A stretch of 12,788 nt of DNA. Origin: JBHIBR01 sp046759145 [NCBI: Nitrospinota bacterium] (GTDB lineage: Bacteria; UBA8248). A program made the translations under genes and the position numbers. Shown here piece after piece: positions 2-12,788 of the stretch. Location of the stretch: positions 1 through 12,788 of the forward strand of contig JBHIBR010000018.1 of assembly GCA_046759145.1 (NCBI GenBank). Direction: 5' to 3'. The notes under the pieces are model-generated. The model saw nothing but the letters and a program-made list of their open reading frames with translations. It ran no database searches and was not told the origin of the DNA. The stretch's first letter is position 1. Each line of letters starts with the position of its first letter.

Positions 2-97
2 CGCCTGGGGGCGGACGACTACATCACGAAACCAATTGACTTGGGTCATCTGGAGGTGAGCGTCCTGGCGAAGGTCCTCGATCGCCTGGGAGACTGA
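2..97 (+). CDS. Response-regulator receiver protein, C-terminal tail only (5' end outside window)
   Basis: The reading frame enters from the left edge and gives 31 residues before TGA at 95-97. They match the end of a CheY-like receiver domain: LGADDYITKP holds the acidic loop after alpha-4 and the invariant Lys-Pro of beta-5, followed by an alpha-5 helix (about LGHLEVSVLAKVLDRL). The protein ends directly after the receiver, so no DNA-binding output domain follows. It could be a single-domain regulator or a protein whose other domains lie upstream. The Lys-Pro-x-Asp-Leu-Gly-x-Leu-Glu pattern recurs in the next gene, so the two may be tandem paralogues. The family call is firm; the partner and output are unknown. 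Confidence 0.8.
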   Translation, partial: RLGADDYITKPIDLGHLEVSVLAKVLDRLGD

Positions 98-173: not shown

Positions 174-542
174 ATGGCGAAGGTCTTAGCGGTGGATGAT
201 GAGCCGGAGACTCTCACCTTTCTGGTCCGCTTTCTCCGGGAGCTCGGCCACGAGGTAGTGACGGCGGCCAGCGGGGCGGAGGCCCTGGAAAAGGCAGAGG
301 CAAATCCCCCCCACGTGGTCCTTCTGGACGTCAAGATGCCCGGACTTGACGGCCTGGAGGTCTTGCGCCGCCTGCGGGGCCGAGGGGTGCCCGTGATCCT
401 GGTGACAGCGATGGCGGAGGAGGCCTTGCGCCGCCGGGACCGTTGCGCCCTCGAGGGAACGCCCTATTTGGCGAAGCCCGTGGACTTGGGCTCCCTGGAG
501 ATGGCCCTGGGAGGCGCCATCGCACCTAGGCCCCCTTCATGA
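174..542 (+). CDS. Single-domain response regulator (CheY-like receiver)
   Basis: A 122-residue stand-alone receiver that should accept a phosphate from a histidine kinase. Visible family residues are the acidic pair D8-D9 after beta-1, the phosphoacceptor D52 in LLDVKMPGLDG, the switch Thr T78 in ILVTAM, and K101 in LAKP. The loop before K101 reads CALEGTPYLAKP and lacks the usual GADD, so this end is diverged. There is no output domain; it probably acts by protein contact or in a phosphorelay. ATG174 is chosen because AGGAG/AAGGAG at 161-170 sits just upstream; an in-frame TTG at 144 lacks this. A 6-bp inverted repeat (135-140/146-151) precedes it. Its stop overlaps the next start as ATGA, which implies translational coupling to the GAF sensor. 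Confidence 0.88.
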   Translation: MAKVLAVDDEPETLTFLVRFLRELGHEVVTAASGAEALEKAEANPPHVVLLDVKMPGLDGLEVLRRLRGRGVPVILVTAMAEEALRRRDRCALEGTPYLAKPVDLGSLEMALGGAIAPRPPS

Positions 543-727
543 CCATCGGGCCATCCTGGCGCGCGCTCGCGGGACTCAGCCAGCTCATCTCCTCCTCCCT
601 GGACACCGAGGAGGTCCTCCAGGCCATCTGCCGCTCTGCGGCCGAGGTGATGGGCGTGCCCTGGGCGCGCCTCTGGGTGATGGATGAGGGGAGGGAGACG
701 CTCCGGCTCGCGGCGGCCGTGGGCTTC
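539..727 (+). pseudogene. GAF-domain sensor (probable histidine kinase), 5' fragment cut at the junction
   Basis: About 63 codons read like the start of a GAF sensor domain: a helix LAGLSQLISSSLDTEEVLQAI (residues 11-31), then MGVPWARLWVMDE and LRLAAAVGF. Proteins with this start, next to receiver genes, are often sensor kinases, but no kinase domain is present here. After residue 63 the frame stays open to a stop at 875-877, yet the remaining 49 residues are the antisense of a cyclase gene and have no GAF character. The gene is therefore truncated, and the 112-residue fusion reading frame is probably not a natural protein. The ATG overlaps the receiver stop and has no Shine-Dalgarno site of its own. 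Confidence 0.65.
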
Positions 728-826
728 GTGGTCCCAGTACGTGATGACCTGCTCCTGGGGCTCCATGGCGCCGTTCATGATCGGCACGCCGAGGTCCACG
801 ATGCGACACTTGGGCCACTCGACCAT
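710..826 (-). pseudogene. Cyclase-family protein (kynurenine formamidase-like), 5' fragment cut at the junction
   Basis: Read from ATG826 the minus strand gives MVEWPKCRIVDLGVPIMNGA, then a VITYWDHEAHGRR stretch. This resembles the N-terminus of cyclase-family metal-dependent hydrolases (IVDLS-x-P-I-x-NGM, then (I)TYxDHxxGAR). Known relatives hydrolyse N-formylkynurenine or cyclic amides and esters. The catalytic HxGTHxDxPxH motif should come further on but is missing, because the sequence switches to an antisense GAF gene after about residue 39. The frame stays open to 464 without cyclase character. The start lies 77 nt after the SDR stop, so this was probably the next gene of the same operon. 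There is no clear AGGAGG; a run of nine G on this strand (plus-strand C9, 833-841) lies six bases upstream of the ATG. Confidence 0.6.
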
Positions 827-903: not shown

Positions 904-1650
904 CTAACCCATCACGAGTCCGCCGTTCACGTCCAGGCACACTCCCGTGATGTAGGACGCCTCATCGGACGCCAGGAAAAGAGCCGCAGCGGCGACATCC
1001 TCCGGCTGGCCCAGGCGGCCGAGCGGGATCTGAGCCAGGAGCGCCTCCCGGCGGCTGGGCAGCCACTCCTCGGTCAGGGGGGTGACCGTAGGGCCGGGCG
1101 CGATGGCGTTGACCGTGATGCCGTAGGGTCCGAGCGCCTTGGCCAACGACCGCGTGAGCCCGATGACGCCCGCCTTGGAGGCAGCGTAGGGGGCGCCCGC
1201 AGCGACGCCGCCCGAACGCCAGGCCGAGGAGGAGAGGCTCACGATGCGCCCGTAGCGCCGGGCCATCATGGGCTCCGCCACGGCGCGGCTGAAGAGGAAA
1301 GCCCCTTTGAGGTTCACGCCCAGCACCCGGTCCCAGTCCTCTTCGGTGTACTCGAGAAAGGGCTTCTTCGGGGAGATGCCGGCGTTGTTGACGAGGATGT
1401 CCACCTGCCCGAACTCGGCGAGGGTCGCCTCGACAACCCGCCTGGCGTCGGCCGACCGGCTTACGTCGGCCGCCTGCGGGACGGCCTGGTGGCCCGCCGC
1501 CACGAGCTCGCGGCAGAGGGCCTCCGCTGCCGCGCTGTTCTGGTCGCAGGCCACGACCCGCGCTCCCTCCCGGGCAAAGGCGAGGGCGATCTCGCGTCCG
1601 ATGCCGCGCCCGCCGCCGGTGATGAAGGCCACTCGGTCCGCCAGTTTCAT
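904..1650 (-). CDS. SDR-family NAD(P)-dependent oxidoreductase (FabG-like)
   Basis: A 248-residue classical short-chain dehydrogenase/reductase interconverting an alcohol and a ketone; the substrate is unknown. The Rossmann motif TGGGRGIG is at 11-18. D36 at the end of beta-2 suggests NAD(H) rather than NADP(H). NNAG is at 88-91, N113, the serine cluster 138-142 supplies the catalytic Ser, and YAASK at 155-159 gives Tyr155/Lys159. NAIAPGPTVT (181-190) and the C-terminal SYITGVCLDVNGG are typical. There is no signal peptide, so it is cytoplasmic. The start is supported by AGGAGG (1656-1661), five bases upstream. It lies 111 nt after the ligase, in the same direction. FabG itself is unlikely because no other fatty-acid synthesis genes are present; a catabolic role is inferred. 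Confidence 0.93.
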   Translation of the reverse strand: MKLADRVAFITGGGRGIGREIALAFAREGARVVACDQNSAAAEALCRELVAAGHQAVPQAADVSRSADARRVVEATLAEFGQVDILVNNAGISPKKPFLEYTEEDWDRVLGVNLKGAFLFSRAVAEPMMARRYGRIVSLSSSAWRSGGVAAGAPYAASKAGVIGLTRSLAKALGPYGITVNAIAPGPTVTPLTEEWLPSRREALLAQIPLGRLGQPEDVAAAALFLASDEASYITGVCLDVNGGLVMG

Positions 1651-1761: not shown

Positions 1762-3333
1762 CTACTTCAGCGCCCTCCGGAGGATCTTCCCGCTTCGCGA
1801 CTTGGGGACGGCCTCGATGAACTCCACTTCCCGAATCTGCTTGTAGCCGGACACCCGCTCGCGGACGAAGGCCATGATCTCTTCCGGTGAGGGTCTCTCC
1901 CCCTCCCTGCTCACGATAAACGCTTTGGGGACCTCCCCTGCTTCGGGGTCGGGTTTCCCCACAACCGCTGCGTCGGCCACCTGCGGATGTTGATGGAGCA
2001 ACGCCTCCAACTCCGCCGGGGCGACGGAGAAGCCTTTGTACTTGATCATCTCCTTTTTCCGGTCGGCTATGAAGACGTAGCCGTCCTCGTCCACGCGGAC
2101 GATGTCGCCCGTGTAGAGCCAGCCGTCCCGCAGGGCCCGGGCCGTCTCCTCGGGGGCGTTCCAGTAGCCCTTCATGATATGGGGCCCCCGGAGGATGAGT
2201 TCGCCGACTTCGCCGGGGGGAAGCTCCTGTTCGCCCGTCTCCAAGTCCACCACCTTCTGCTCCTCGTCCGAGACGGGGGGACCTACCGAAGCCTCCTTCA
2301 CCCACTCCCTGACGGGCGGGTTCATGTGGGTGAGCGGCGACGCCTCGGTCAGGCCGTAGCCCATGAACGTGAGGACGCCGGTGCGCTCCTCGACGCGCCG
2401 GCGCACCGGGGGGGGCAGGTGCGCGGCCCCGCTCATGATGTAACGCAGCGAGGAGAGGTCGTACTCCTCCACGTCGGGATGGTCGGCGATGGCCAGCAGG
2501 GCAGGCGGGACGCCGTACAAGAGGGTGATCCGGTGGCGCTCGATCAGGCGGAGCACCTCCTCCACCTCGAATCGGCGCATCAAGACCTGCTTGGCGCCCG
2601 CCAGCACGAGGCCGCCCATGATCATGGTCCCGTAGATGTGGTAGAGCGGCAGGAAGAGCAGGCCGCTGTCTCGTTCGGTGATCCGGTGGTTGGCGACGAA
2701 CTGATGGTAGTTGGCCACCAGGTTGCGGTGCGTCAGCATCACTCCCTTGGGGAACCCCGTGGTGCCGCTGGAGTAGGGGAGCGCCATGAGGTCCTCGGCG
2801 GCATCCAGGGGGGGTTCGGGAGGCGGGTCGGGCGGATGGGCCAGGATCCACTCCTCGAAGCGCGGGAAGCCGCGCCGCTCTCCGCCCACGGCGATCACTT
2901 CCCGGAGCGCGGGCAGCTCCTTCCGGATGGCCTCGACGATGGGGATCAGCTCGCCGGCCGCCACGAGGAGCTTTGCACCCGAATCGCGGAGCTGGTGGGT
3001 CGCCTCGGCTTCCTTGTAGGAGGGGTTGAGCGGGGTGAACACCGCGCCCGCCTTGGAGCAGCCGAAGGCGGCGATCTCGAACTCGGCCGAGTTGGGAAGG
3101 AACAGAGCCATCCGGTCGCCGGGAGCGACGCCCGCTGCCCTGAGGGCGTGGGCGAACGCGTTGGAGAGGCAATCCAGCTCGCGGAAGGTGAGTTCCGCCT
3201 CCCCCTCCCCCTCCACCAGGGCCACGCCGTCGGGCCTGCGCTCGCAGGCCGTCCGGAGGAGCCCGTGGAAGGGATAGTCCGGGTAGTGGAGGGGCGGCCG
3301 GGAGTACGGAGGCAATTCTCGAGAGGAGCTCAT
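1762..3333 (-). CDS. AMP-forming acyl-CoA synthetase/ligase (ANL superfamily, 4-coumarate-CoA-ligase-like)
   Basis: A 523-residue adenylating enzyme expected to activate a carboxylic acid with ATP and form the CoA thioester. The AMP-binding P-loop YSSGTTGFPKG is at 187-197. LPLYHIYG (228-235) and YGLTEASP (326-333) line the acid and adenine site. TGD is at 408-410. The hinge region ADRKKEMIKYKG (423-434) carries the ribose-binding region and R425. The C-terminal lid ends in PKSRSGKILRR with catalytic K516. Length fits 4CL-type enzymes (about 520-560). ATG3333 is chosen because the 4CL-like N-terminus begins there. Its ribosome site is poor (GGGGGA upstream), and in-frame ATGs at 3378 and 3396 are no better. 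The frame is open further upstream, up to 3888, but that part is not ligase-like. The acid substrate is unknown, probably a product of the neighbouring hydrolase. Confidence 0.93.
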   Translation of the reverse strand: MSSSRELPPYSRPPLHYPDYPFHGLLRTACERRPDGVALVEGEGEAELTFRELDCLSNAFAHALRAAGVAPGDRMALFLPNSAEFEIAAFGCSKAGAVFTPLNPSYKEAEATHQLRDSGAKLLVAAGELIPIVEAIRKELPALREVIAVGGERRGFPRFEEWILAHPPDPPPEPPLDAAEDLMALPYSSGTTGFPKGVMLTHRNLVANYHQFVANHRITERDSGLLFLPLYHIYGTMIMGGLVLAGAKQVLMRRFEVEEVLRLIERHRITLLYGVPPALLAIADHPDVEEYDLSSLRYIMSGAAHLPPPVRRRVEERTGVLTFMGYGLTEASPLTHMNPPVREWVKEASVGPPVSDEEQKVVDLETGEQELPPGEVGELILRGPHIMKGYWNAPEETARALRDGWLYTGDIVRVDEDGYVFIADRKKEMIKYKGFSVAPAELEALLHQHPQVADAAVVGKPDPEAGEVPKAFIVSREGERPSPEEIMAFVRERVSGYKQIREVEFIEAVPKSRSGKILRRALK

Positions 3334-3640
3334 GCCTGTCCCCCACGTTTCCCCGCCTGGGGCAACCTGTTGAAACATGAGGTGAACAAAGTGCATCCCG
3401 GTGCGATAAGAATAGCCACGGCCGCCTCCGTCCGCAAGCCGGGTTCCCGACGACGCGATGGGGGGGCACGCCTCGCGGAGCCTGCGGGCCAGGGGGGCCA
3501 TCTGCTCGAGGAAGACGTCGTCGGGAAGCTGAGGGGCGTGGGCGCAAGCCTGCGCCACGAGGAGAAAGTCTCGGCGCGCGCGGGGCGGCCCCCTGCGTCC
3601 GGTCCGCCCGGATGGCGGCGAGCCCCTCTCCCTTTCCGCC
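3334..3640 (-). other. 307-nt gap between hydrolase and ligase, with a coding-like stretch of unknown origin
   Basis: This is the longest gap inside the minus-strand cluster; no complete gene is visible. In the ligase frame about 40 codons (3570 down to about 3450) read like ordinary protein: DFLLVAQACAHAPQLP, then DDVFLEQMAPLARRLREAC. Nearly all third positions are G or C, as in the genes around it. No independent start or stop frames it. It could be the relic of a lost gene, an N-terminal ligase extension, or chance openness in GC-rich DNA. I do not recognise the family. The rest of the gap shows no promoter or terminator that I can defend. Confidence 0.4.
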
Positions 3641-4879
3641 TCAGCCGCGGAGGGCGCGGCGGCTGTCCCACCAGGGCGGGCGGGCGTCGCCTTCAGTGAT
3701 TCGCCCGTCCTTCTCGAAGTAGATTTGCCGGCTGTGGTTGCGCCCAAACTTGCCGGCCAGGGCGGCGACGAGCCAGTCCGCGCCCAAGGAGAGGAAGTCC
3801 TGTCCCACCCCGCCGAGGGGGTGATACTCATTGCCGAACACCCACAGCTCGCGCGGCTTGGGGATCTCCTCCCAGTTCTTGAGGACATGGTCGAGAGGCG
3901 TGAGCTCGTCGAACTCGCCGTGCATCCAGAGCAGCGGGCACTCGACCCTGGGCAGCACCTCCCGCAGGTTGAGCTGGGGCATGAGTTCCTCGTCGAACCT
4001 CCTCTCGTCCGTGTAGCCCGCCATGTTCATGTAGTTCGCCTTGAAGTTGGGCTGGGCGACGTTGAAGATGATGTGCAGGTCGTAGCCCGTGCAGCCCATG
4101 GCCGTGGCGCTCGCCCGGATGCGCGAGTCGTGGGCGCAGATGCGGGCGCCCCAGTAGCTGCCCATGGAGACGCCGAAGTGGACGATCCTGCGGGCGTTCA
4201 CCTCGGGGCGCCTCACCAGCCAGTCGATGAACCTGCTCCCCGCCCGCTCGTAGTTCGTCGCATCCACCTTGCCGCCGATGGTGAGCGACTCGCCCTGGCC
4301 GGGGCCGTCCATCGAGAGGGCCGCGAAGCCCCGCGGGATGTAGTGGCGCATGATGACGGCGTGCCAGTCCTCCTTGAACATGTCCATCCCGGGGCCGAGG
4401 AGGATGCAGGGGAAGGGTCCCCTCCCCGGCGGGGCGTAGTAGATGCCGAAGATCCTCTTGCCCTTCTCGAAGGGAAGCTCCACCCGCCGGATGCGGGCCT
4501 CATCCGTGTGCTGGGCCACCTTGGTGTGGCAGGCGGCGACCTTGCGCTGGAAGTGGCGCTTGCGCGCGTCGTCCTGGTAGTAGCTGTACTGGGCCCGCCC
4601 GTAGAGGAGCATGGCGCGCGCGTAGAAGTCGCGCGCGGCCAGGGGGTAGCCCCGCCGCTCGGCCCAGATGGCCTTGCGCTCGATCTCCTGGGCCGTCTCG
4701 GCGAAGGCCCGCGGGAAGTGGAGCGTCGAGCCGACCTTGCCGAAGACCCGGTCGACGTCGGAGTGGTAGTAGCCGATCTCCTCGAAGATGCCGCGGACCT
4801 CGGGGTGCAGGACGTCCCAGCCGCCCAACGTCACCAGCGCGTCCAGGACCCACCGCTGTCCTTGCCGTTGCGTCGCCAT
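3641..4879 (-). CDS. Alpha/beta hydrolase, 2,6-dihydropseudooxynicotine hydrolase-like/FrsA-like
   Basis: A 412-residue serine hydrolase with a long N-terminal helical region (about 1-135) before the alpha/beta core. The nucleophile elbow GVSMG is at 236-240 (S238). D324 in MHGEFDELTP and H353 in GNEYHPLGG complete the triad. An oxyanion-type LLGPGMDMFKEDW is at 160-172, and SMDGPGQGES at 189-198. The helical cap-like N-terminus and triad spacing resemble the group containing 2,6-dihydropseudooxynicotine hydrolase, which cleaves a C-C bond in nicotine breakdown; relatives are esterases or amidases, so the reaction is not settled. No signal peptide: cytoplasmic. GGGAG lies about seven bases before ATG4879. 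It follows the ABC ATPase by 70 nt in the same direction, so its substrate may be what the importer delivers. Confidence 0.85.
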   Translation of the reverse strand: MATQRQGQRWVLDALVTLGGWDVLHPEVRGIFEEIGYYHSDVDRVFGKVGSTLHFPRAFAETAQEIERKAIWAERRGYPLAARDFYARAMLLYGRAQYSYYQDDARKRHFQRKVAACHTKVAQHTDEARIRRVELPFEKGKRIFGIYYAPPGRGPFPCILLGPGMDMFKEDWHAVIMRHYIPRGFAALSMDGPGQGESLTIGGKVDATNYERAGSRFIDWLVRRPEVNARRIVHFGVSMGSYWGARICAHDSRIRASATAMGCTGYDLHIIFNVAQPNFKANYMNMAGYTDERRFDEELMPQLNLREVLPRVECPLLWMHGEFDELTPLDHVLKNWEEIPKPRELWVFGNEYHPLGGVGQDFLSLGADWLVAALAGKFGRNHSRQIYFEKDGRITEGDARPPWWDSRRALRG

Positions 4880-4949
4880 GGGCTTTCTCCCGTTTGAAGA
4901 GAGCGCGCGAGGAAGGATGTCTGCGAGAGCGCGTGCGCCCCCGCGGGGG

Positions 4950-6023
4950 TCAGCGGATCCGTTTCCCGTCCCCGTCGAAGAGGTAAAGGCGATCGGGGTC
5001 GAACGAGATGCCCAGGCGGTCGCCCTCGCGGAAGGGCTTCGTCCCCTCGACGACGGCGATGAGGGGCCTCTCGCCGCCGTGGTCGAAATAGAGGAGGGTG
5101 TCCTTCCCGAGGGGCTCGACCAGCCGGACCTCGCCCTGGAAGGCTCCCGCGTCCTCGCCCACCGAGAGGTGCTCGGGCCGGAAGCCGAGGGTGGCCGCGC
5201 CCGGAGCCACGGCCGGAATCTCGGGCGGCAGGTCGACCGTGAACGTCGGCCCCCGGAAACGGGCGGCCTCTCCCTCTTTGTGGATCTGGCCCGGGATGAG
5301 GTTCATCGAGGGGCTGCCGAAGAAGTCCGCGACGAAGTAGCTGACCGGGTCGCCGTAGATCTCCAGCGGTCGCCCCACCTGCTCGATGACGCCGTCGCGC
5401 ATGACGACGATGCGGTCGGCGAGGGTCATCGCCTCCTCCTGGTCGTGGGTCACGTAGATGAAGGTCTTCTCCAGCTCCTGGTGGAGGCGGTCGACCTCGG
5501 CCCGCATCTCCCGGCGCAGCTTGGCGTCCAGGCTGGAGAGGGGCTCGTCGAGGAGGAAGGCCGAGGGCTCGGTGATGAGGGTGCGCGCCACGGCGACGCG
5601 CTGGGCCTCGCCGCCCGAGCACTGGCCCGGCAGCTTGTCGAGGAGGTGGCCGATCCGGACCATCTCGGCCACCTCCCGCACCCGTCTTCTACGCGTCTCC
5701 CGGTCGACTTTCTTCATCCGCGGTCCGAACTCGATGTTCTCGGCCACCGTCTTGTGGGGGAAGAGGGCGAGGTTCTGGAAGACCATCCCGAGGTTCCGCT
5801 GGCCCGGCTCGAGGTCGTTGACCAGGCGGCCGTCGATGTAGACCTCCCCGGCGGTGGGCTCCTCGAAGCCGGCGATCATCCGGAGCGCGGTCGTCTTCCC
5901 GCAGCCCGAGGGCCCGACGAGGACGAGGAACTCCCCCTCCTCGACGACGAGGTTGAATTCCTTGACCGCCTCGACCCCCCCGGCGAACACCTTGCGCAGG
6001 TTCTTGATCTCGATCCGCGCCAC
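4950..6023 (-). CDS. ABC transporter ATP-binding subunit (MalK/UgpC-like, carbohydrate-type importer)
   Basis: A 357-residue cytoplasmic ATPase that powers the adjacent permeases. Walker A GPSGCGKT is at 37-44, Q-loop Q83, signature CSGGEAQR at 135-142, Walker B AFLLDEP at 155-161, D-loop SSLD at 163-166, and switch H193. A C-terminal regulatory/OB (TOBE-like) region from about 240 carries FGSPSMN (235-241) and GFRPEH (280-285), typical of CUT1-class ATPases. The signature departs from the usual LSGGQQQR (Leu to Cys, QQ to EA) but keeps SGG. The start is GTG6023, five bases after the upstream permease stop, with GAGGTAGG before it; no ATG fits the family N-terminus (ARIEIKNLRKVF). Substrate specificity cannot be read from this subunit. 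Confidence 0.95.
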   Translation of the reverse strand: MARIEIKNLRKVFAGGVEAVKEFNLVVEEGEFLVLVGPSGCGKTTALRMIAGFEEPTAGEVYIDGRLVNDLEPGQRNLGMVFQNLALFPHKTVAENIEFGPRMKKVDRETRRRRVREVAEMVRIGHLLDKLPGQCSGGEAQRVAVARTLITEPSAFLLDEPLSSLDAKLRREMRAEVDRLHQELEKTFIYVTHDQEEAMTLADRIVVMRDGVIEQVGRPLEIYGDPVSYFVADFFGSPSMNLIPGQIHKEGEAARFRGPTFTVDLPPEIPAVAPGAATLGFRPEHLSVGEDAGAFQGEVRLVEPLGKDTLLYFDHGGERPLIAVVEGTKPFREGDRLGISFDPDRLYLFDGDGKRIR

Positions 6024-6028
6024 GGCAC

Positions 6029-6904
6029 CTACCTCTTCACCATGCCGAAGCTGAAGCCCCGGACGAGGTGCTTCCGGATCACGCACCCGATGATGATGAG
6101 CGGGAAGGTGATCCCCACCGCGAGGGCCGCCTGGCGGCCGTAGACGCGCCCTTCGGTCGCTCCCTCGTACTTGGCGAGCTGGATGGGCAGCGTCACCACG
6201 TCCGTCTTGGAGAGGATCAGGGCCATCAGGTACTCGCTCCACGTCAGGATGAGGACGAACAGGAAGGTCGCCACCACGCCCGAGCGCACGAGGGGGAGGA
6301 TCACCTCCCAGATCGTCCGCCATCGGCTCGCCCCGAGGATAGCGGCCGCCTGCTCCATCTCGAGGGGGATCTCGTCTATGAAGCTCTTCGTCATCCAGAC
6401 GGAATAGGGCAGGGTCGTGATTATGTACACGATGGCGAGGCCCGTGACGGTGTCCAGGAGGTGGATGGCCGAGTAGTAGAGGGTGAGCGGGACGGCCACC
6501 ACGATGGGCGGGATCATCCGGAGCATGAGGAGGTTGAACATCCGCACCTCCGAGAGGACCCGGTAGCGCGAGACCCCGTAGGCCAGAAGCGTGCCGAAGA
6601 ACACCGAGATTGCGGTGGAGGTTGTCGCGATCAGGAGGCTGTTCCTGAACGCTTCCCAGGGCGTTTGAAGCGACATGGCATATTGGGTGGTCGTCGCCTC
6701 CGTGGAAGATCCCCAGACCGCCCGATAGTTGTCCATCGTGGGCGTCCTGGACCAGTAGACGGGCGGCCAGGCAAACCACTCGTGGTCGGGTTTGAAGGAG
6801 GTCGCCACGATCCAGTAGATGGGGAAGGCGACGATCAGGAACCAGATCCCCAGCAGGGTGAAGCGGAGGAACCCGTGCATCCTGCGCTTGGTCTTGCGCT
6901 TCAC
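6029..6904 (-). CDS. ABC transporter permease, MalG-type (second membrane subunit)
   Basis: A 291-residue inner-membrane protein with six probable helices (about 12-34, 88-110, 122-143, 152-170, 206-230, 258-276). The EAA loop that docks on the ATPase is E184-QAAAILGASRW through LP at 203-204. The N-terminal SFKP (36-39) is typical of MalG-like CUT1 permeases. The start is GTG6904, which overlaps the preceding permease stop as GTGA and has GGGGGAG six bases upstream. A later ATG at 6880 (residue 9) is the alternative. The product begins with a very basic stretch (KRKTKRR), consistent with the cytoplasmic side. It should pair with the 6901-7845 permease as a heterodimer. Confidence 0.94.
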   Translation of the reverse strand: MKRKTKRRMHGFLRFTLLGIWFLIVAFPIYWIVATSFKPDHEWFAWPPVYWSRTPTMDNYRAVWGSSTEATTTQYAMSLQTPWEAFRNSLLIATTSTAISVFFGTLLAYGVSRYRVLSEVRMFNLLMLRMIPPIVVAVPLTLYYSAIHLLDTVTGLAIVYIITTLPYSVWMTKSFIDEIPLEMEQAAAILGASRWRTIWEVILPLVRSGVVATFLFVLILTWSEYLMALILSKTDVVTLPIQLAKYEGATEGRVYGRQAALAVGITFPLIIIGCVIRKHLVRGFSFGMVKR

Positions 6905-7845
6905 GTTTGCTCCCCCCGCGCCTGGTACATCGCGTCCAGCGCCCTCTTCTCCCTCCGGAGCACGCGTATGGCGGCGAGGACGATGACGATCATGAGCAGC
7001 ATGACGATGTAGGACATCGCCGCGCCCTTCGAGATGTGGAAGTATTCCCAGGTGGTCAGGTAGAGGTAGACGGGGATCGTCTCGGTGGCCGTGCCGGGTC
7101 CGCCCTGGAAGAGGGCCCAAGTCTTCGGGAACTCAGCGATCGCCTCGAGGAACCGCAGGATGAGCGCCAGGAAGATGACGGGCCGGAGGAGGGGGAGCTG
7201 GACCTCGCGGAAGATCCGCCAGCGGCTCGCGCCGAGGTTCTGCGCCGCCTCCGTGAGTTCTTCGGGCAGGGCGGCCAGGCCCGCCAGCATGATGATGAAG
7301 GCGAAGGGGGTCCAGTTCCAGATTTCCAGGAGGACGATGGTGAGGACGGCAATGTCCGGGTCTGTGAGCCAGATGACGTTGATGTCGGCCCCGAGGATCG
7401 CGCTCAGGATGCCGTTGACGGGTCCCTTCTGGTAGAGGAGCATCTCGGCCGTGTAGGCGATGACGATGGGCACCGTGAGCATGGGGAGGATGAAGAAGGC
7501 GTAGAAAAAGCCATTCCCTTTGAAGGGCCGATACATCAGGAGCGCGAGGCCGAAGCCGATGACGAAGCAGCCCAGGGTCGAGAGGCCCGCGAAGAAGAGG
7601 GAGCGCAGGATGGACCAGAGGAACCGCTCGTCGGTCAGGACCTCGAGGAAGGAGTCGAACCAGACGAACTCGGCGTCCCACCAGCTCGTCAAATAGACGG
7701 TCCAGGAGTGGAAGCTGAAGTAGATCTGAAGCAGAAACACCGGGAGTATGAACAAGAGCAGGGCGACGAGGGGCGTCAACAGGGTCCACTTGAAGACGGA
7801 GACCCCGGGGATTCGCCTTCCTCTGAGCTCTGCGGTTGTGGCCAT
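6901..7845 (-). CDS. ABC transporter permease, MalF-type (first membrane subunit)
   Basis: A 314-residue inner-membrane protein with several hydrophobic spans (about 20-42, 78-105, 112-135, 165-190, 222-238, 276-296). The EAA loop runs from E199 (EAAQNLGASRW) to LP at 217-218. FQGGPGTATETIPVY (246-260) is the conserved loop of MalF/UgpA-like permeases. Length fits the smaller CUT1 partner without the large MalF periplasmic domain. ATG7845 has no visible Shine-Dalgarno site. A strong hairpin (7859-7890) lies just upstream, so expression may depend on RNA processing or coupling. The 3' end overlaps the second permease by four bases. Confidence 0.94.
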   Translation of the reverse strand: MATTAELRGRRIPGVSVFKWTLLTPLVALLLFILPVFLLQIYFSFHSWTVYLTSWWDAEFVWFDSFLEVLTDERFLWSILRSLFFAGLSTLGCFVIGFGLALLMYRPFKGNGFFYAFFILPMLTVPIVIAYTAEMLLYQKGPVNGILSAILGADINVIWLTDPDIAVLTIVLLEIWNWTPFAFIIMLAGLAALPEELTEAAQNLGASRWRIFREVQLPLLRPVIFLALILRFLEAIAEFPKTWALFQGGPGTATETIPVYLYLTTWEYFHISKGAAMSYIVMLLMIVIVLAAIRVLRREKRALDAMYQARGEQT

Positions 7846-7858
7846 GGCGATGGGTTGC

Positions 7859-7890
7859 GTCCGGGGCGGGCCTTCCGGCCCGCCCCGGAC
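7859..7890 (-). promoter_or_regulatory. Perfect 14-bp RNA stem with GGAA loop between binding-protein and permease genes
   Basis: Arms 7859-7872 and 7877-7890 are exact reverse complements, with a four-base loop. On the transcribed minus strand the loop reads GGAA, which fits the stable GNRA tetraloop class. The stem begins about 28 nt after the binding-protein stop and ends 13 nt before the permease ATG. No T-run follows, so full termination is unlikely. In many importer operons a stem here protects the binding-protein mRNA and lowers expression of the membrane subunits. That role is inferred, but the stem itself is unambiguous. Confidence 0.85.
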
Positions 7891-7918
7891 CCGCTCAAGG
7901 CGCGAGGGTTTGCCTGAA

Positions 7919-9370
7919 CTAGCTCGGGACGTCGACCTTCGGGAAGGCCGCCTTGTAGCTGGCGAGCTCGGCCTTGAGCTTCCGCTTGCCGATCTGCCGG
8001 ATCAGCCTTCCCCAGGCGGCCTCGGTCTTCGTCAGGACGTCCTTCGCCTTGAGCTGCCCGACGTAGGCCTCGGAGATGTGCTTGCCGAGCACGTCCTGGA
8101 ACTCCCGGTGGCCCGTCAGGTAGACGGGCGGCGCGGTCACGAGCAGGCAGTCGCGGATGGCCTTGACGCCCTGGGGCGTGTAGGCCTCCTCGACCGCTTT
8201 GCTGGTGAAGTGGCCCGCATGCCAAGGGTCGTGGAAGAAGAATTTCCGGTCGGCGACGATGGTGGTGCTGTTCTCCCGGGTCCCCCAGTACGTGGCCATG
8301 TAGGCGGCCTGGCGCTTCCGCGGGCTGTAGCGGTTGACCATGACCGCCGTGAGCGGCGAGGAGATCGACCGGTGGACGAGCTTGCCGCTGAGCCTCGACC
8401 CCGGAATGAGGCCGTAGGCCCACTTCCCGCGCGTTTTTGATTTCGGCGACTCGACCCCCGAGATGAGGCCATCCCAGTACTGGGAGGAGAAGATGTGCCC
8501 GAGTTGATGCTGGGGGATCATCTGGGGGGTGCCCCAGCCGGGCGCTTCAGGGGGGGAGACCTTCTTGAGCTTGAGGTAGACGTCCATGGCGTACTCGCCG
8601 GCGGGGGTGTTCAGCGTCGGCTCCATGTCGTCGTCGAAGGGGAATCCCCCGGCGCTGTAGAAGTACATGTACCACCAGGTGACGCCGTTCGCCCGGTTGC
8701 GCAGGCTTCCGGAGCCCCAGATGTGTGGTTTCTGGTCGGGCCGGTGGAAGAATTCCAGGACCTCCTGGTGGTCCTCCCAGGTCACGGGCCACTTGAGGGG
8801 CTTCCCGTGCTTGTCGGCGAAGGCCTTCTGCTCGTCGGGGTTCTCGAAGAGGTCTTTGCGGATGAACTGGTTGTGGACGTTTCCGTCCGTGGGGATCGCG
8901 TAGGTCTTGCCCCTGTACCTCATGAATGAGGCGAAGTTCCCCACCATGTCGAACTTGAAGCCGGCCTCCTCCATGTACTCGTCGAGGGGCTCGATCAGGC
9001 CGGCCGAGGCCAGGGAGGGGATCATGTTCGAGTCGAGGTGGAAGAAGTCGAACTTGGGGGAGCGGGCGACCGCCTCGGCCATGGCGCGCTGGGGGATCTG
9101 GAAGACGCTGATGTCCTGGATCTTGCCGACGCCGACGCCCGCTTTCTTTTTGAATTCGGCTGCCAGGTTCCTCATCGGACCGTTGTAGTAGAGCCCCCAG
9201 ATCATGCCGCTCAAGTCGGCGGGCTTGGCCTTCCTCGCCGCCCGGATGATCCGGTCTTCCTCGGGCCCGGCCTCGGCCAAGCGAGGATGGCGGAGCACCC
9301 AGGGCCCGGCCACAGCGGCCGCCAGCCCGGCCTTGATGAAACTGCGCCTGCTCAACCTGCGCTCGCTCAT
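7919..9370 (-). CDS. Tat-exported extracellular solute-binding protein of the ABC importer
   Basis: A 483-residue protein expected to capture the solute outside the inner membrane and pass it to the permeases. The N-terminus carries a twin-arginine signal: SRRSFIK (7-13), a hydrophobic stretch (14-24) and a likely cleavage site after AEA (32-34). Export through Tat implies folding, and possibly cofactor binding, in the cytoplasm. The mature part has features of family-1 (UgpB/MalE-like) binding proteins, such as LIEPLDEYM (125-133) and GKTYAIPTDGN (154-164). It is somewhat longer than the usual ~420-450. ATG9370 is chosen for a near-perfect GAGGAGGT (9378-9385) and the signal peptide beginning there; an in-frame GTG at 9430 would add 20 residues ahead of the signal. 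Ligand unknown; many aromatic residues around 214-240 could suit a sugar or aromatic ring. Confidence 0.92.
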   Translation of the reverse strand: MSERRLSRRSFIKAGLAAAVAGPWVLRHPRLAEAGPEEDRIIRAARKAKPADLSGMIWGLYYNGPMRNLAAEFKKKAGVGVGKIQDISVFQIPQRAMAEAVARSPKFDFFHLDSNMIPSLASAGLIEPLDEYMEEAGFKFDMVGNFASFMRYRGKTYAIPTDGNVHNQFIRKDLFENPDEQKAFADKHGKPLKWPVTWEDHQEVLEFFHRPDQKPHIWGSGSLRNRANGVTWWYMYFYSAGGFPFDDDMEPTLNTPAGEYAMDVYLKLKKVSPPEAPGWGTPQMIPQHQLGHIFSSQYWDGLISGVESPKSKTRGKWAYGLIPGSRLSGKLVHRSISSPLTAVMVNRYSPRKRQAAYMATYWGTRENSTTIVADRKFFFHDPWHAGHFTSKAVEEAYTPQGVKAIRDCLLVTAPPVYLTGHREFQDVLGKHISEAYVGQLKAKDVLTKTEAAWGRLIRQIGKRKLKAELASYKAAFPKVDVPS

Positions 9371-9377
9371 GGTGTGC

Positions 9378-9412
9378 ACCTCCTCTGCCTCTGTGGCGGG
9401 GCTACAGAGGCA
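9378..9412 (-). promoter_or_regulatory. Ribosome binding site plus 27-bp dyad in the binding-protein leader
   Basis: The minus strand carries GAGGAGGT at 9378-9385. Directly abutting it is an inverted repeat, TGCCTCTGT (9386-9394) and ACAGAGGCA (9404-9412), perfect over nine bases with a 9-nt centre. In RNA it forms a stem ending at the first base of the ribosome site; in DNA it has the size of a dimeric-repressor operator. It lies about 60-87 bases downstream of the inferred transcription start. It could therefore act as an operator roadblock or as an RNA element tuning translation. Confidence 0.6.
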
Positions 9413-9479
9413 TTGAGAGACACTCGGCACTCACTCTCGCGCCGGAGCGACAAAGCAATTCTCCTCTTTTATCAATATA

Positions 9480-9507
9480 ATAATAGGGGAAGTTGGAACC
9501 GTGTCAA
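9480..9507 (-). promoter_or_regulatory. Sigma70-type promoter for the ABC importer operon
   Basis: On the minus strand TTGACA (9507-9502, full consensus) is followed after 16 bases by TATTAT (9485-9480, five of six). It sits in a small AT-rich island in otherwise GC-rich sequence. The expected start is near 9473, giving a leader of about 100 nt before ATG9370. Genes from the binding protein to the cyclase could all be read from here. Confidence 0.7.
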
Positions 9508-9544
9508 CCGAGCGAGCGGAAATTTTCCCCATCCTCTCACGGGC

Positions 9545-9611
9545 AAAAGACGCGGGGCGCCTTCGCGGGGAGGCGTCCCCGCGGGGCCGGCCCGGCGCCT
9601 CCTGGGCCGGC
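9545..9611 (-). terminator. Tandem hairpins, possible terminator of the CocE transcript
   Basis: In minus-strand order, stem 1 pairs 9604-9611 with 9586-9593 (8 bp, 10-nt loop). Stem 2 pairs 9576-9583 with 9564-9571 (8 bp, 4-nt loop), extendable through 9561-9586 with wobble pairs. TCTTTT (9550-9545) follows about ten bases after stem 2, a weak U-tract. The hairpins lie 150-200 nt after the CocE stop and just before the importer promoter, so they would separate the two units. The remaining intergenic stretch, 9612-9761, shows nothing I can name. Confidence 0.35.
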
Positions 9612-9761
9612 AGCCGAGGTGCTTGATCCCTCCTGTGGGGGGATGGTATAGAGCCTGCCGATCCTGGTTTTCCGTTTTCGGACCCCTGCCGGGGGGGCGA
9701 CTTCCGTCGGCGCGCCGCGCGACCCCTCCGGCCAGCGCTCGCGCCGACCCGACGGCGAGGG

Positions 9762-11516
9762 CTACGCGGCGGAGCGCTTCGGCGGGATGATCGGGAGGAG
9801 CACGTACGCAGCCCGGTCAGGACCGACGTGGAGCCTGCTCTTGCCGCTGAAGATCTCCGGCGGGCGGTCGCGCGGATCGTCGTGCAGGAACGGCCCGCAG
9901 CCCCTGAGCTCGTTCTTGAAGTTCGAGAGCCTCCCGCCGCTCGGGCCGGGGTACTCGTAGTCCTTCCCGCGCACGGTCAGGGCGATCCGGTAGCCAGCCG
10001 GCACCACGATGGAGGTCGGCCAGATCTCCACGTCGAGCTCGACCACCCCCCCCGGGGTCAGCGGCTGCAGCTCGTCGTGGGTGTGGTACGGGCGGTACTC
10101 GGTGCTGAGCTCGGGGTCGAGCTTGCGGTGCGACGCCCGCAGCCAGCCCTGGCCGACCGGGGTGTGGGGATCGATCGCCCCTTGGAAGACCGCCTCTTTC
10201 CCGTCGGGAGCGAAGGCGCGCAGCACGAGGAAGATGTCGGCGTCCGTCGACGACGAGGACACGAACAGCTTGGCCGCCGAGGGCCCGGTGATCTCCGTCT
10301 CCTCCTCCAGCGGGGGCGAGGTGAAGGTGACGCCGTCGCCGGGGCCGTCGTACTCGATGCTCCCCTCAGCGGCGACCGGCTCCCGGCTGAGGCTGAGGTC
10401 GGCGGGGTTGAGGTAGAGCCGGGTCCAACGGGTCCGGGCGATCGGCCACTCGTTCTCCATGCGCTCGGCGAAGCCGTCGAGCCTGCGGACCTGGAGCTGG
10501 ACGCGCGGCCGGTCCTGCCAGCCGTTGTCGAGCCCTCTCAGGAAGTGGTCGAAGAAGCGCTTCTGGAGCTTCACCCCGTAGTCGGTGTAGAACTCGGTCC
10601 AGTGCTCGAGCCCGTGCGCCTCGAGCCACTTCTGCTCCGAGGCGGCGCGCACGAAGCCCTCGAAGTTCCCGCGCGGGTGAAGCCCCTGGCCGCCCCAGTT
10701 CGCCGCGGAGAGAAAGGGCACGGTGACCTTCGACCATGCGGGCGACCGCGCCTTGTGGTAGTCGTCGTCGAGCGGGTGGGCGAGGATCTCTTTCCCTAAG
10801 TCGCACCGGTTCCTGGCCAGCTCCTCGTCGGAGAGTGTCTCTGCGCCGCAGACGAGCTCGCCGGTCACGCGACTGCGCGGGCCCCGCTCACCCAGGCCGT
10901 ACTGCACGGTCTTGACCTGCATGTCGTACCAGTTGGCCCAGAACGTGCAAACGATGCCCCCGTGGTAGGTCATGTCGCGGTACCAGTCGGCGGCGCCTTC
11001 CCAGATGCACATCGCCGCCAGGTGGGGCGGCTGTAGCGAGGCCACGTGCCACTGGTTGATCGCGTAGTAGGAGACGCCGTTCAGGCCCACCTTGCCGTTG
11101 CTCCACGGCTGGGTTCCCGCCCATTCGATGCAGTTGTGAAGGTCCTGGGTCTCCCGGGGGGAGAAGTGGTCGATGTACCCCGGCGAGCGGCCGCAGCCCC
11201 GGGAGTCGACCCGCACGCAGACGTAGCCGTCGGCCACCCACTTCTCCGGGTCGACGACCTCCCAGTTCTGGTACTTGTTGGTCGAGCCCGCCGTCACGTC
11301 GGGGTGCTCTGCGGCCATCCGCTCCCACGCGCTCGGGTAGCCGTCCTGGAAGGCGAGACCCTTGGCGTAGGGGCCGTAGCTCAGGATCACTGGGTACTGG
11401 CCATCCTCCATCGGCCGGTAGAGGTCGGCGCGCAGGACGAGGCCGTCATCCATCGCGATCGGGACATCCCAGTCGATCCGCATCCCGTCCCTGATCTCGC
11501 TTTTCTCCTGACTCAT
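9762..11516 (-). CDS. CocE/NonD family hydrolase (S15-type alpha/beta hydrolase with C-terminal jelly-roll domain)
   Basis: A 584-residue esterase/acylaminopeptidase-like hydrolase; known relatives cleave cocaine's benzoyl ester, glutaryl amides or X-Pro dipeptides. Residues about 15-330 form the catalytic domain: SYGPYAKG (46-53) supplies the oxyanion Tyr region, RVDSRGCGRSPG is at 102-113, and nucleophile S149 lies in NGVSYY. H305 in GLEHWTEFY is the likely catalytic His. Where CocE has GW-x-D, this protein reads NWGG (273-276), so the usual acid is not in its usual place. The C-terminal beta-rich PepX_C-like domain starts near 335 and runs to the end. No signal peptide: cytoplasmic. ATG11516 has GGAGG four bases upstream; an in-frame ATG at 11546 lacks a ribosome site. 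Natural substrate unknown. Confidence 0.92.
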   Translation of the reverse strand: MSQEKSEIRDGMRIDWDVPIAMDDGLVLRADLYRPMEDGQYPVILSYGPYAKGLAFQDGYPSAWERMAAEHPDVTAGSTNKYQNWEVVDPEKWVADGYVCVRVDSRGCGRSPGYIDHFSPRETQDLHNCIEWAGTQPWSNGKVGLNGVSYYAINQWHVASLQPPHLAAMCIWEGAADWYRDMTYHGGIVCTFWANWYDMQVKTVQYGLGERGPRSRVTGELVCGAETLSDEELARNRCDLGKEILAHPLDDDYHKARSPAWSKVTVPFLSAANWGGQGLHPRGNFEGFVRAASEQKWLEAHGLEHWTEFYTDYGVKLQKRFFDHFLRGLDNGWQDRPRVQLQVRRLDGFAERMENEWPIARTRWTRLYLNPADLSLSREPVAAEGSIEYDGPGDGVTFTSPPLEEETEITGPSAAKLFVSSSSTDADIFLVLRAFAPDGKEAVFQGAIDPHTPVGQGWLRASHRKLDPELSTEYRPYHTHDELQPLTPGGVVELDVEIWPTSIVVPAGYRIALTVRGKDYEYPGPSGGRLSNFKNELRGCGPFLHDDPRDRPPEIFSGKSRLHVGPDRAAYVLLPIIPPKRSAA

Positions 11517-11603
11517 CGCGCCTCCATCACCTCGTCTCTCCGTCATCACGCGGCTCGGTCCGACGCCCACCCCCCGCGGGCTCTCCTGCTGCTCGTCGGA
11601 CAC

Positions 11604-12045: not shown

Positions 12046-12788
12046 ATGGCGGAGCTGGCCTATATCGGGAAAGACGCGACTCAGGTGGACGCCCACGTCA
12101 AGGCCACGGGCGAGGCCCGCTACACGGCGGATCTCTACCTCCCGGGGATGCTCTACGGCTGTCTTCTTCGGAGCCTCCTCCCTCACGCCCGGATCGGGGA
12201 GATCCGGACGGGCCGCGCCGAGCGGGTGCCCGGCGTCAAGGCGGTCATCACCGGCTCCGACACCCCCTACAAGTTCGGCGTCTCCCACTACGACCAGAGC
12301 CCCCTCGCCGTGGACAAGGTGCGCCACATCGGCGACCCGGTGGCCGCCGTGGCGGCGACGAGCCTGGACGCCTGTGAGGAGGCCCTCTCCCTCATCGAGG
12401 TGGACTACGAGGAGCTGCCCGCCGTCTTCCACCCCGAGGGGGCCATGGAGCCGGGCGCGCCCCTCATCCACGAGGACAAGGAGCGCAACATCGCCGCGCA
12501 CATCCAGTACAACGCGGGGGACGTGGAGGAGGCCTTCCGGCGGGCCGAGCACGTGTTCGAGGACCGGTTTGAGACCCAGCGCCAGGCCCACATGTGCATG
12601 GAGCCCCACGTGTGTGTCGCCCACGTGGAGCCCTCGGGGAGGATCACCTTCTACTACTCCACCCAGGCGCCCTCTTACTCCCGCACGCAGATGGCCAAGA
12701 TCCTCGGGGTTCCCGAGAGCCAGATCCGGGTGGTCACCCACAACGTGGGCGGGGGGTTCGGCAGCAAGGCCACCGGCAAATTCTGCAT
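12046..12788 (+). CDS. Xanthine dehydrogenase/CoxL family molybdopterin-binding subunit, N-terminal part (runs off window)
   Basis: 247 codons of a protein whose family is usually 700-800 residues. It should be the catalytic large subunit of a molybdenum hydroxylase, which inserts an oxygen from water into a C-H bond of a (hetero)aromatic ring or aldehyde. KATGEARYTADLYLPGMLYG (19-38) and RSLLPHARI (42-50) open the a/b hammerhead domain. VPGVKAVITGSD (61-72), VRHIGDPVAAVAA (92-104) and VDYEELPAV (119-127) follow. The molybdopterin-binding domain begins with ERNIAAHIQYNAGDVEEAF and reaches GGGFGSK (235-241), the conserved Mo-cofactor loop. Active-site Glu and substrate-defining loops lie beyond the window. 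GGAGG at 12033-12037 and an in-frame stop (TAG at 12010-12012) support ATG12046. FAD and iron-sulphur partners are not seen and may follow. Confidence 0.93.
   Translation, partial: MAELAYIGKDATQVDAHVKATGEARYTADLYLPGMLYGCLLRSLLPHARIGEIRTGRAERVPGVKAVITGSDTPYKFGVSHYDQSPLAVDKVRHIGDPVAAVAATSLDACEEALSLIEVDYEELPAVFHPEGAMEPGAPLIHEDKERNIAAHIQYNAGDVEEAFRRAEHVFEDRFETQRQAHMCMEPHVCVAHVEPSGRITFYYSTQAPSYSRTQMAKILGVPESQIRVVTHNVGGGFGSKATGKFC

What the first reader, a model, noticed from the sequence alone, without database searches (positions are those of the whole stretch)
700..740. Two unrelated genes cut at one point: head-on GAF sensor/cyclase junction
Left of about 720 the plus strand encodes a GAF sensor; right of it the minus strand encodes the first ~39 residues of a cyclase. 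The stretch 710-727 reads plausibly in both (AAAVGF one way, EAHGRR the other), so the join may sit in short shared sequence. Nothing like an insertion element is present. Either an inversion or deletion joined two loci here, or contigs were wrongly joined. If real, the cluster lost its cyclase and the regulators lost their kinase.
Basis: partly seen in the sequence, partly recalled or inferred. Interest (0 to 1): 0.6.

Follow-up and report, generated by a model that had tools for sequence, protein, structure and literature searches.

The report
Two broken genes joined head-on
Near the start of this stretch the front part of a sensor gene runs straight into the front part of an unrelated enzyme gene on the other strand; this is most likely a wrong join made during amplification or assembly, and less likely a real rearrangement.

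Summary
On the plus strand a GAF-domain gene (539 to about 724-727) stops matching its family after about 40 of about 130 profile positions. On the minus strand the first 33-38 residues of a probable PF04199 'cyclase family' hydrolase (start codon at 826) stop at about 728, at most 713, before the HxGTHxDxP stretch. A codon model puts the strand switch at 727-735, with under 3 bits lost back to 698; 0 of 843 antisense windows of the training genes reach 22 bits, against 24.6 here. Full-length relatives of both halves continue past the break. The two similarities leave at most a few bases between them, so there is no room for an inserted element. A shared stretch at 713-724 is possible, not proven. 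I favour an artefactual join (0.72): no genome is held for the window, the join lies about 720 bases from its left edge, and two genes break at one point. A real rearrangement (0.25) is not excluded: no reads, parent genome or close relative could be examined. 'Regulators lost their kinase' is not supported: of the two GAF relatives found, the one scanned (L093) ends in GGDEF, a diguanylate cyclase domain.

The parts
2..97 (+). C-terminal end of a first response regulator, cut by the window edge
   Evidence: translation; weak Response_reg match to profile positions 91-108 of 111, E 0.11
174..542 (+). stand-alone response regulator receiver protein
   Evidence: PF00072, E 9.3e-23
539..727 (+). 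5' part of a GAF-domain sensor gene, truncated at the join
713..730 (.). interval that holds the join: GAF similarity runs to 724, cyclase similarity to 728 and possibly to 713
728..826 (-). 5' part of a probable cyclase family (PF04199) gene, truncated at the join before the HxGTHxDxP stretch
904..1650 (-). short-chain dehydrogenase gene upstream of the cyclase start, same strand
   Evidence: adh_short_C2, E 1.4e-70
1762..3546 (-). AMP-binding acyl-CoA ligase gene, same strand (start not determined)
   Evidence: PF00501, E 2.5e-100

Best explanation
The join is an artefact: two stretches that are not neighbours in any cell were fused at about 713-730 during whole-genome amplification, library making or assembly, perhaps by way of a short matching G+C-rich word. 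The intact GAF sensor gene and the intact cyclase gene lie elsewhere. Shown: two genes on opposite strands both break off at one point. Inferred: that the fusion is not biological, and how it arose.
For: Both genes break off within 713-730, which leaves no room for an inserted element; no long repeat lies at the join (one 24-base, 75% inverted pair, 681-704 with 12447-12470, is near it and looks like chance). The join is about 720 bases from the window's left edge, and no whole genome is held for the window; whether the window is a whole contig is not known. In a single-cell amplification, 85% of 475 chimeras were inverted joins, with matches of up to 21 bases (PMC1855051, passages). Chimeric contigs are a known fault of short-read metagenome assembly (PMC7299287, passages).
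Against: No reads were available, so nothing tests the artefact directly. Third-position G+C is high on both sides (0.80 and 0.94 left; 0.88 to 0.95 right), so nothing shows two source organisms. The overlap supported by conserved residues is 12 bases at most, shorter than the words of about 21 bases that assemblers usually need (recalled). Head-on genes do not by themselves show that one piece was inverted relative to its source. The 30-base junction word was not found in viral contigs nor a 22-base one in 214 fetched loci, which tells little.
Confidence: 0.72

Rival explanations
1. A real rearrangement: an inversion, or a deletion with an inversion, broke both genes in this strain and joined their 5' parts head-on. 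The cyclase would be non-functional, and the GAF frame would run on through 49 residues of antisense reading to a stop at 875-877.
For: Frames are intact on both sides, and codon usage and third-position G+C of both sides fit one G+C-rich genome. The plus frame stays open to 877.
Against: No mobile element fits between the two similarities and no long inverted repeat lies at the join. No relative with the same join was seen, but close relatives were not reached: the 40-residue query matched in 2 of 1606 genome searches, at 45% and 43% identity.
Confidence: 0.25
2. One or both genes are naturally short and merely meet head to head, so that nothing is broken.
For: Each half has a plausible start codon and an open frame. 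The 40-residue piece has no Pfam match of its own.
Against: All 11 cyclase relatives in the alignment continue for about 215 residues beyond the break; GAF similarity stops in mid-domain while both relatives continue; codon scores flip at the same place.
Confidence: 0.03

Closest known systems
Chimeric join from multiple displacement amplification or metagenome assembly
   Same: two unrelated stretches fused at a point or over a short match, no mobile element between them
   Different: source, library type and reads of this record are unknown, so the cause cannot be assigned, and whether one piece is inverted relative to its source is unknown
Cyclase family (PF04199) hydrolase; nearest solved relatives of L081 are isatin hydrolases (5nnb, E 4.8e-9)
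   Same: N-terminal 33-38 residues, with D11, Y30 and H33 of the alignment
   Different: the remaining about 215 residues, with HxGTHxDxP, are absent
GAF-domain sensor (as in L093 and L094)
   Same: first about 40 positions of the domain; 37% and 35% identity over residues 9-62
   Different: the rest of the domain and any output domain are absent

Membership tests
Cyclase family PF04199 | N-terminal block with conserved D, Y and H | tested here: met
   D11, Y30 and H33 invariant with 11 full-length relatives; profile of ten relatives scores the fragment above all 2000 of its shuffles, 7.9 against 6.5 bits
Cyclase family PF04199 | HxGTHxDxP stretch (metal binding: recalled) | tested here: not met
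   absent; past the join the minus strand is the antisense of the GAF gene
Cyclase family PF04199 | Pfam match of the fragment itself | tested here: not met
   no match for the 40 residues at E up to 10; full-length L081 and L092 match at 5.5e-36 and 1.4e-36
GAF domain | N-terminal third of the profile | tested here: met
   GAF_3 positions 2-39 of 129, E 0.0038, 18.1 bits, under the cut-off of 27; two relatives align over residues 9-62
GAF domain | complete domain of about 130 positions | tested here: not met
   extending the frame to 874 carries only the weak GAF_2 match on, to residue 66
Amplification or assembly chimera | abnormal read depth or pairing at the join | not testable with these tools
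   no reads held
Amplification or assembly chimera | both source genes intact elsewhere in the organism | not testable with these tools
   no whole genome is held for the window

The most novel reading that the evidence does not exclude
A real inversion fixed in an uncultured bacterium removed a catabolic-cluster hydrolase and cut a regulator gene, leaving an expressed hybrid reading frame (GAF start plus 49 antisense-coded residues).
Probability: 0.04. Interest if true: 0.25.

Novelty: not a real feature. Interest (0 to 1): 0.08.

Why it matters
Mainly a caution: gene neighbourhoods read across 713-730 (two-component genes beside a cyclase, dehydrogenase, ligase and transporter cluster) should not be trusted. 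If real, it would be an ordinary gene-breaking rearrangement.

Tried and rejected
Considered and rejected: naturally short genes (see rivals); an inserted element at the join (no room between the two similarities; no search with insertion-element models was run) and a long repeat there.

Led nowhere: the window's own genome (none held); viral contigs with the solute-binding protein, a permease and the S15 hydrolase (no relative, 13 stretches matched a pattern and none held up); the 30-base junction in viral contigs (none); plasmids with the 40-residue cyclase piece (none at E 1) and the 63-residue GAF piece (none at E 0.01); plasmids with the dehydrogenase (best listed 47%) and the solute-binding protein (28-30% in the rows listed). 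Gene order could not be checked in close relatives: the best dehydrogenase relatives were 64% (L001) and 54% (L216; 2 of 190 genomes at E 1e-70, one of them the genome of L001). None of 82 dehydrogenase loci (80 plus L215 and L216; L215 is the same place as L001; many loci have short flanks) holds a cyclase homologue at E 1e-8, so the pairing of this dehydrogenase with a cyclase is not confirmed by relatives. I fetched 10 of the 189 plasmid records with a cyclase match; 9 are annotated, and of these one (L084) has a dehydrogenase on the same strand with two genes between it and the cyclase, and one (L089) has a dehydrogenase on the other strand. One search was given 32 of the 80 loci, of which 2 were not held. 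My guess that the organism is a soil lineage such as Rokubacteria is recalled and was not tested. Of the papers, two were seen as passages and the rest only in search listings.

Full report
The observation. The plus strand from 174 carries a stand-alone response regulator (PF00072, E 9.3e-23), then, overlapping it by four bases, a gene that starts at 539 and begins a GAF domain. The minus strand carries, from right to left, an S15-type hydrolase, a solute-binding protein, transporter parts, an esterase-like protein, an acyl-CoA ligase, a short-chain dehydrogenase (904-1650) and then a start codon at 826. The two strands' genes meet at about 720.

The right-hand fragment. The 40 residues read from 826 down to 707 match nothing in Pfam, NCBIfam or the PDB on their own. 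In whole genomes they matched in 2 of 1606 genome searches (a few genomes were searched twice): L081 at 45% identity over residues 8-38, E 0.0022, and L092 at 43% over residues 6-35, E 0.0014. The misses were 30 of 30, 251 of 251 at a stricter limit of 0.001, 397 of 398, 2 of 2, 39 of 39, 295 of 296, 247 of 247, 145 of 145 and 198 of 198. The E-values are for one genome, so over about 1600 genomes a few hits of this strength are expected by chance. It is telling, though, that both fall on the N-terminus of full-length PF04199 proteins (E 5.5e-36 and 1.4e-36). An alignment with L081 and ten plasmid relatives shows D11, Y30 and H33 invariant; all 11 relatives continue for about 215 more residues, with the HxGTHxDAP block, and the fragment does not. 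Reading the minus frame on past the join gives no such block. As a control, a profile of the ten plasmid relatives, which were not chosen by the fragment, scores it at 7.9 bits; the best of 2000 shuffles reaches 6.5. With L081 and L092 added, which were chosen by the fragment, it is 11.9 against 7.1. Among 196 open pieces of the window the best with that larger profile is the piece that contains the fragment; with the ten-relative profile that piece comes second, 4.1 against 4.4 bits. So the cyclase identity is probable, on modest scores. Residue 33 lies at 728-730; R38 (713-715) is shared with L081 and L084 only.

The left-hand fragment. Residues 23-60 match GAF_3 profile positions 2-39 of 129 (E 0.0038, under the curated cut-off). 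With the frame extended to 874 the GAF_3 match ends at residue 61, GAF at 59 and GAF_2 at 66 (E 0.087). Of 140 genomes of one phylum searched with the 63 residues, 2 matched at E 1e-4 or better: L093 and L094, 37% and 35% identical over residues 9-62, in open frames of 536 and 540 residues. Both continue without a break past residue 62. L093, the one scanned, has a complete GAF domain followed by GGDEF. So the lost part need not have been a kinase.

Is it chance? A codon model trained on seven other genes of the window, all on the right-hand side, gives 23.0 bits for the plus frame over 539-724 and -15.8 for the antisense frame; over 728-826 it gives -14.4 and 24.6. The best change points are 730, 733, 727 and 734-735, with a loss of under 3 bits back to 698. 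In the training genes 0 of 843 overlapping antisense windows of 33 codons reach 22 bits, the highest being 17.7.

Where exactly is the join? GAF similarity runs to G62 (722-724). Cyclase similarity runs to H33 (728-730) and possibly to R38 (713-715). A blunt join at 725-727 and a shared word of up to 12 bases at 713-724 both fit.

What made it? The two similarities leave at most a few bases between them, so nothing can be inserted there, and no long repeat lies at the join. In one amplified single cell, 85% of 475 chimeras were inverted joins, with matches of up to 21 bases (PMC1855051, passages), and chimeric contigs are a known fault of metagenome assembly (PMC7299287, passages). No genome is held for the window, and the join is about 720 bases from its left edge; I do not know whether the window is a whole contig. 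I therefore favour an artefact at 0.72, by inference and prior, not by a direct test. A real rearrangement stays at 0.25: third-position G+C is high on both sides (0.80 and 0.94 left, 0.88-0.95 right), and no reads or close relatives could be examined. Against a simple reading of the cluster: none of 82 dehydrogenase loci carries a cyclase nearby, so the lost gene's place here rests on strand and spacing, and on 1 of 9 annotated plasmid loci with a dehydrogenase on the same strand (L084).

Noticed in passing
12046-12786: Plus-strand start of a xanthine dehydrogenase family molybdopterin-binding subunit (Ald_Xan_dh_C E 1.2e-27, MoCoBD_1 E 7.6e-34), cut by the window's right edge.
   Followed up: partly
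1762-11603: Minus-strand cluster of acyl-CoA ligase, FrsA-like esterase, ABC transporter parts, solute-binding protein and S15/PepX_C hydrolase; by inference, uptake and breakdown of an organic acid or ester.
   Followed up: no
L086, L088, L090: Full-length plasmid relatives of the cyclase sit close to a CocE/NonD hydrolase, xanthine dehydrogenase family genes or a prolyl oligopeptidase family protein; S15-type hydrolase and xanthine dehydrogenase family genes are also present in this window.
   Followed up: no
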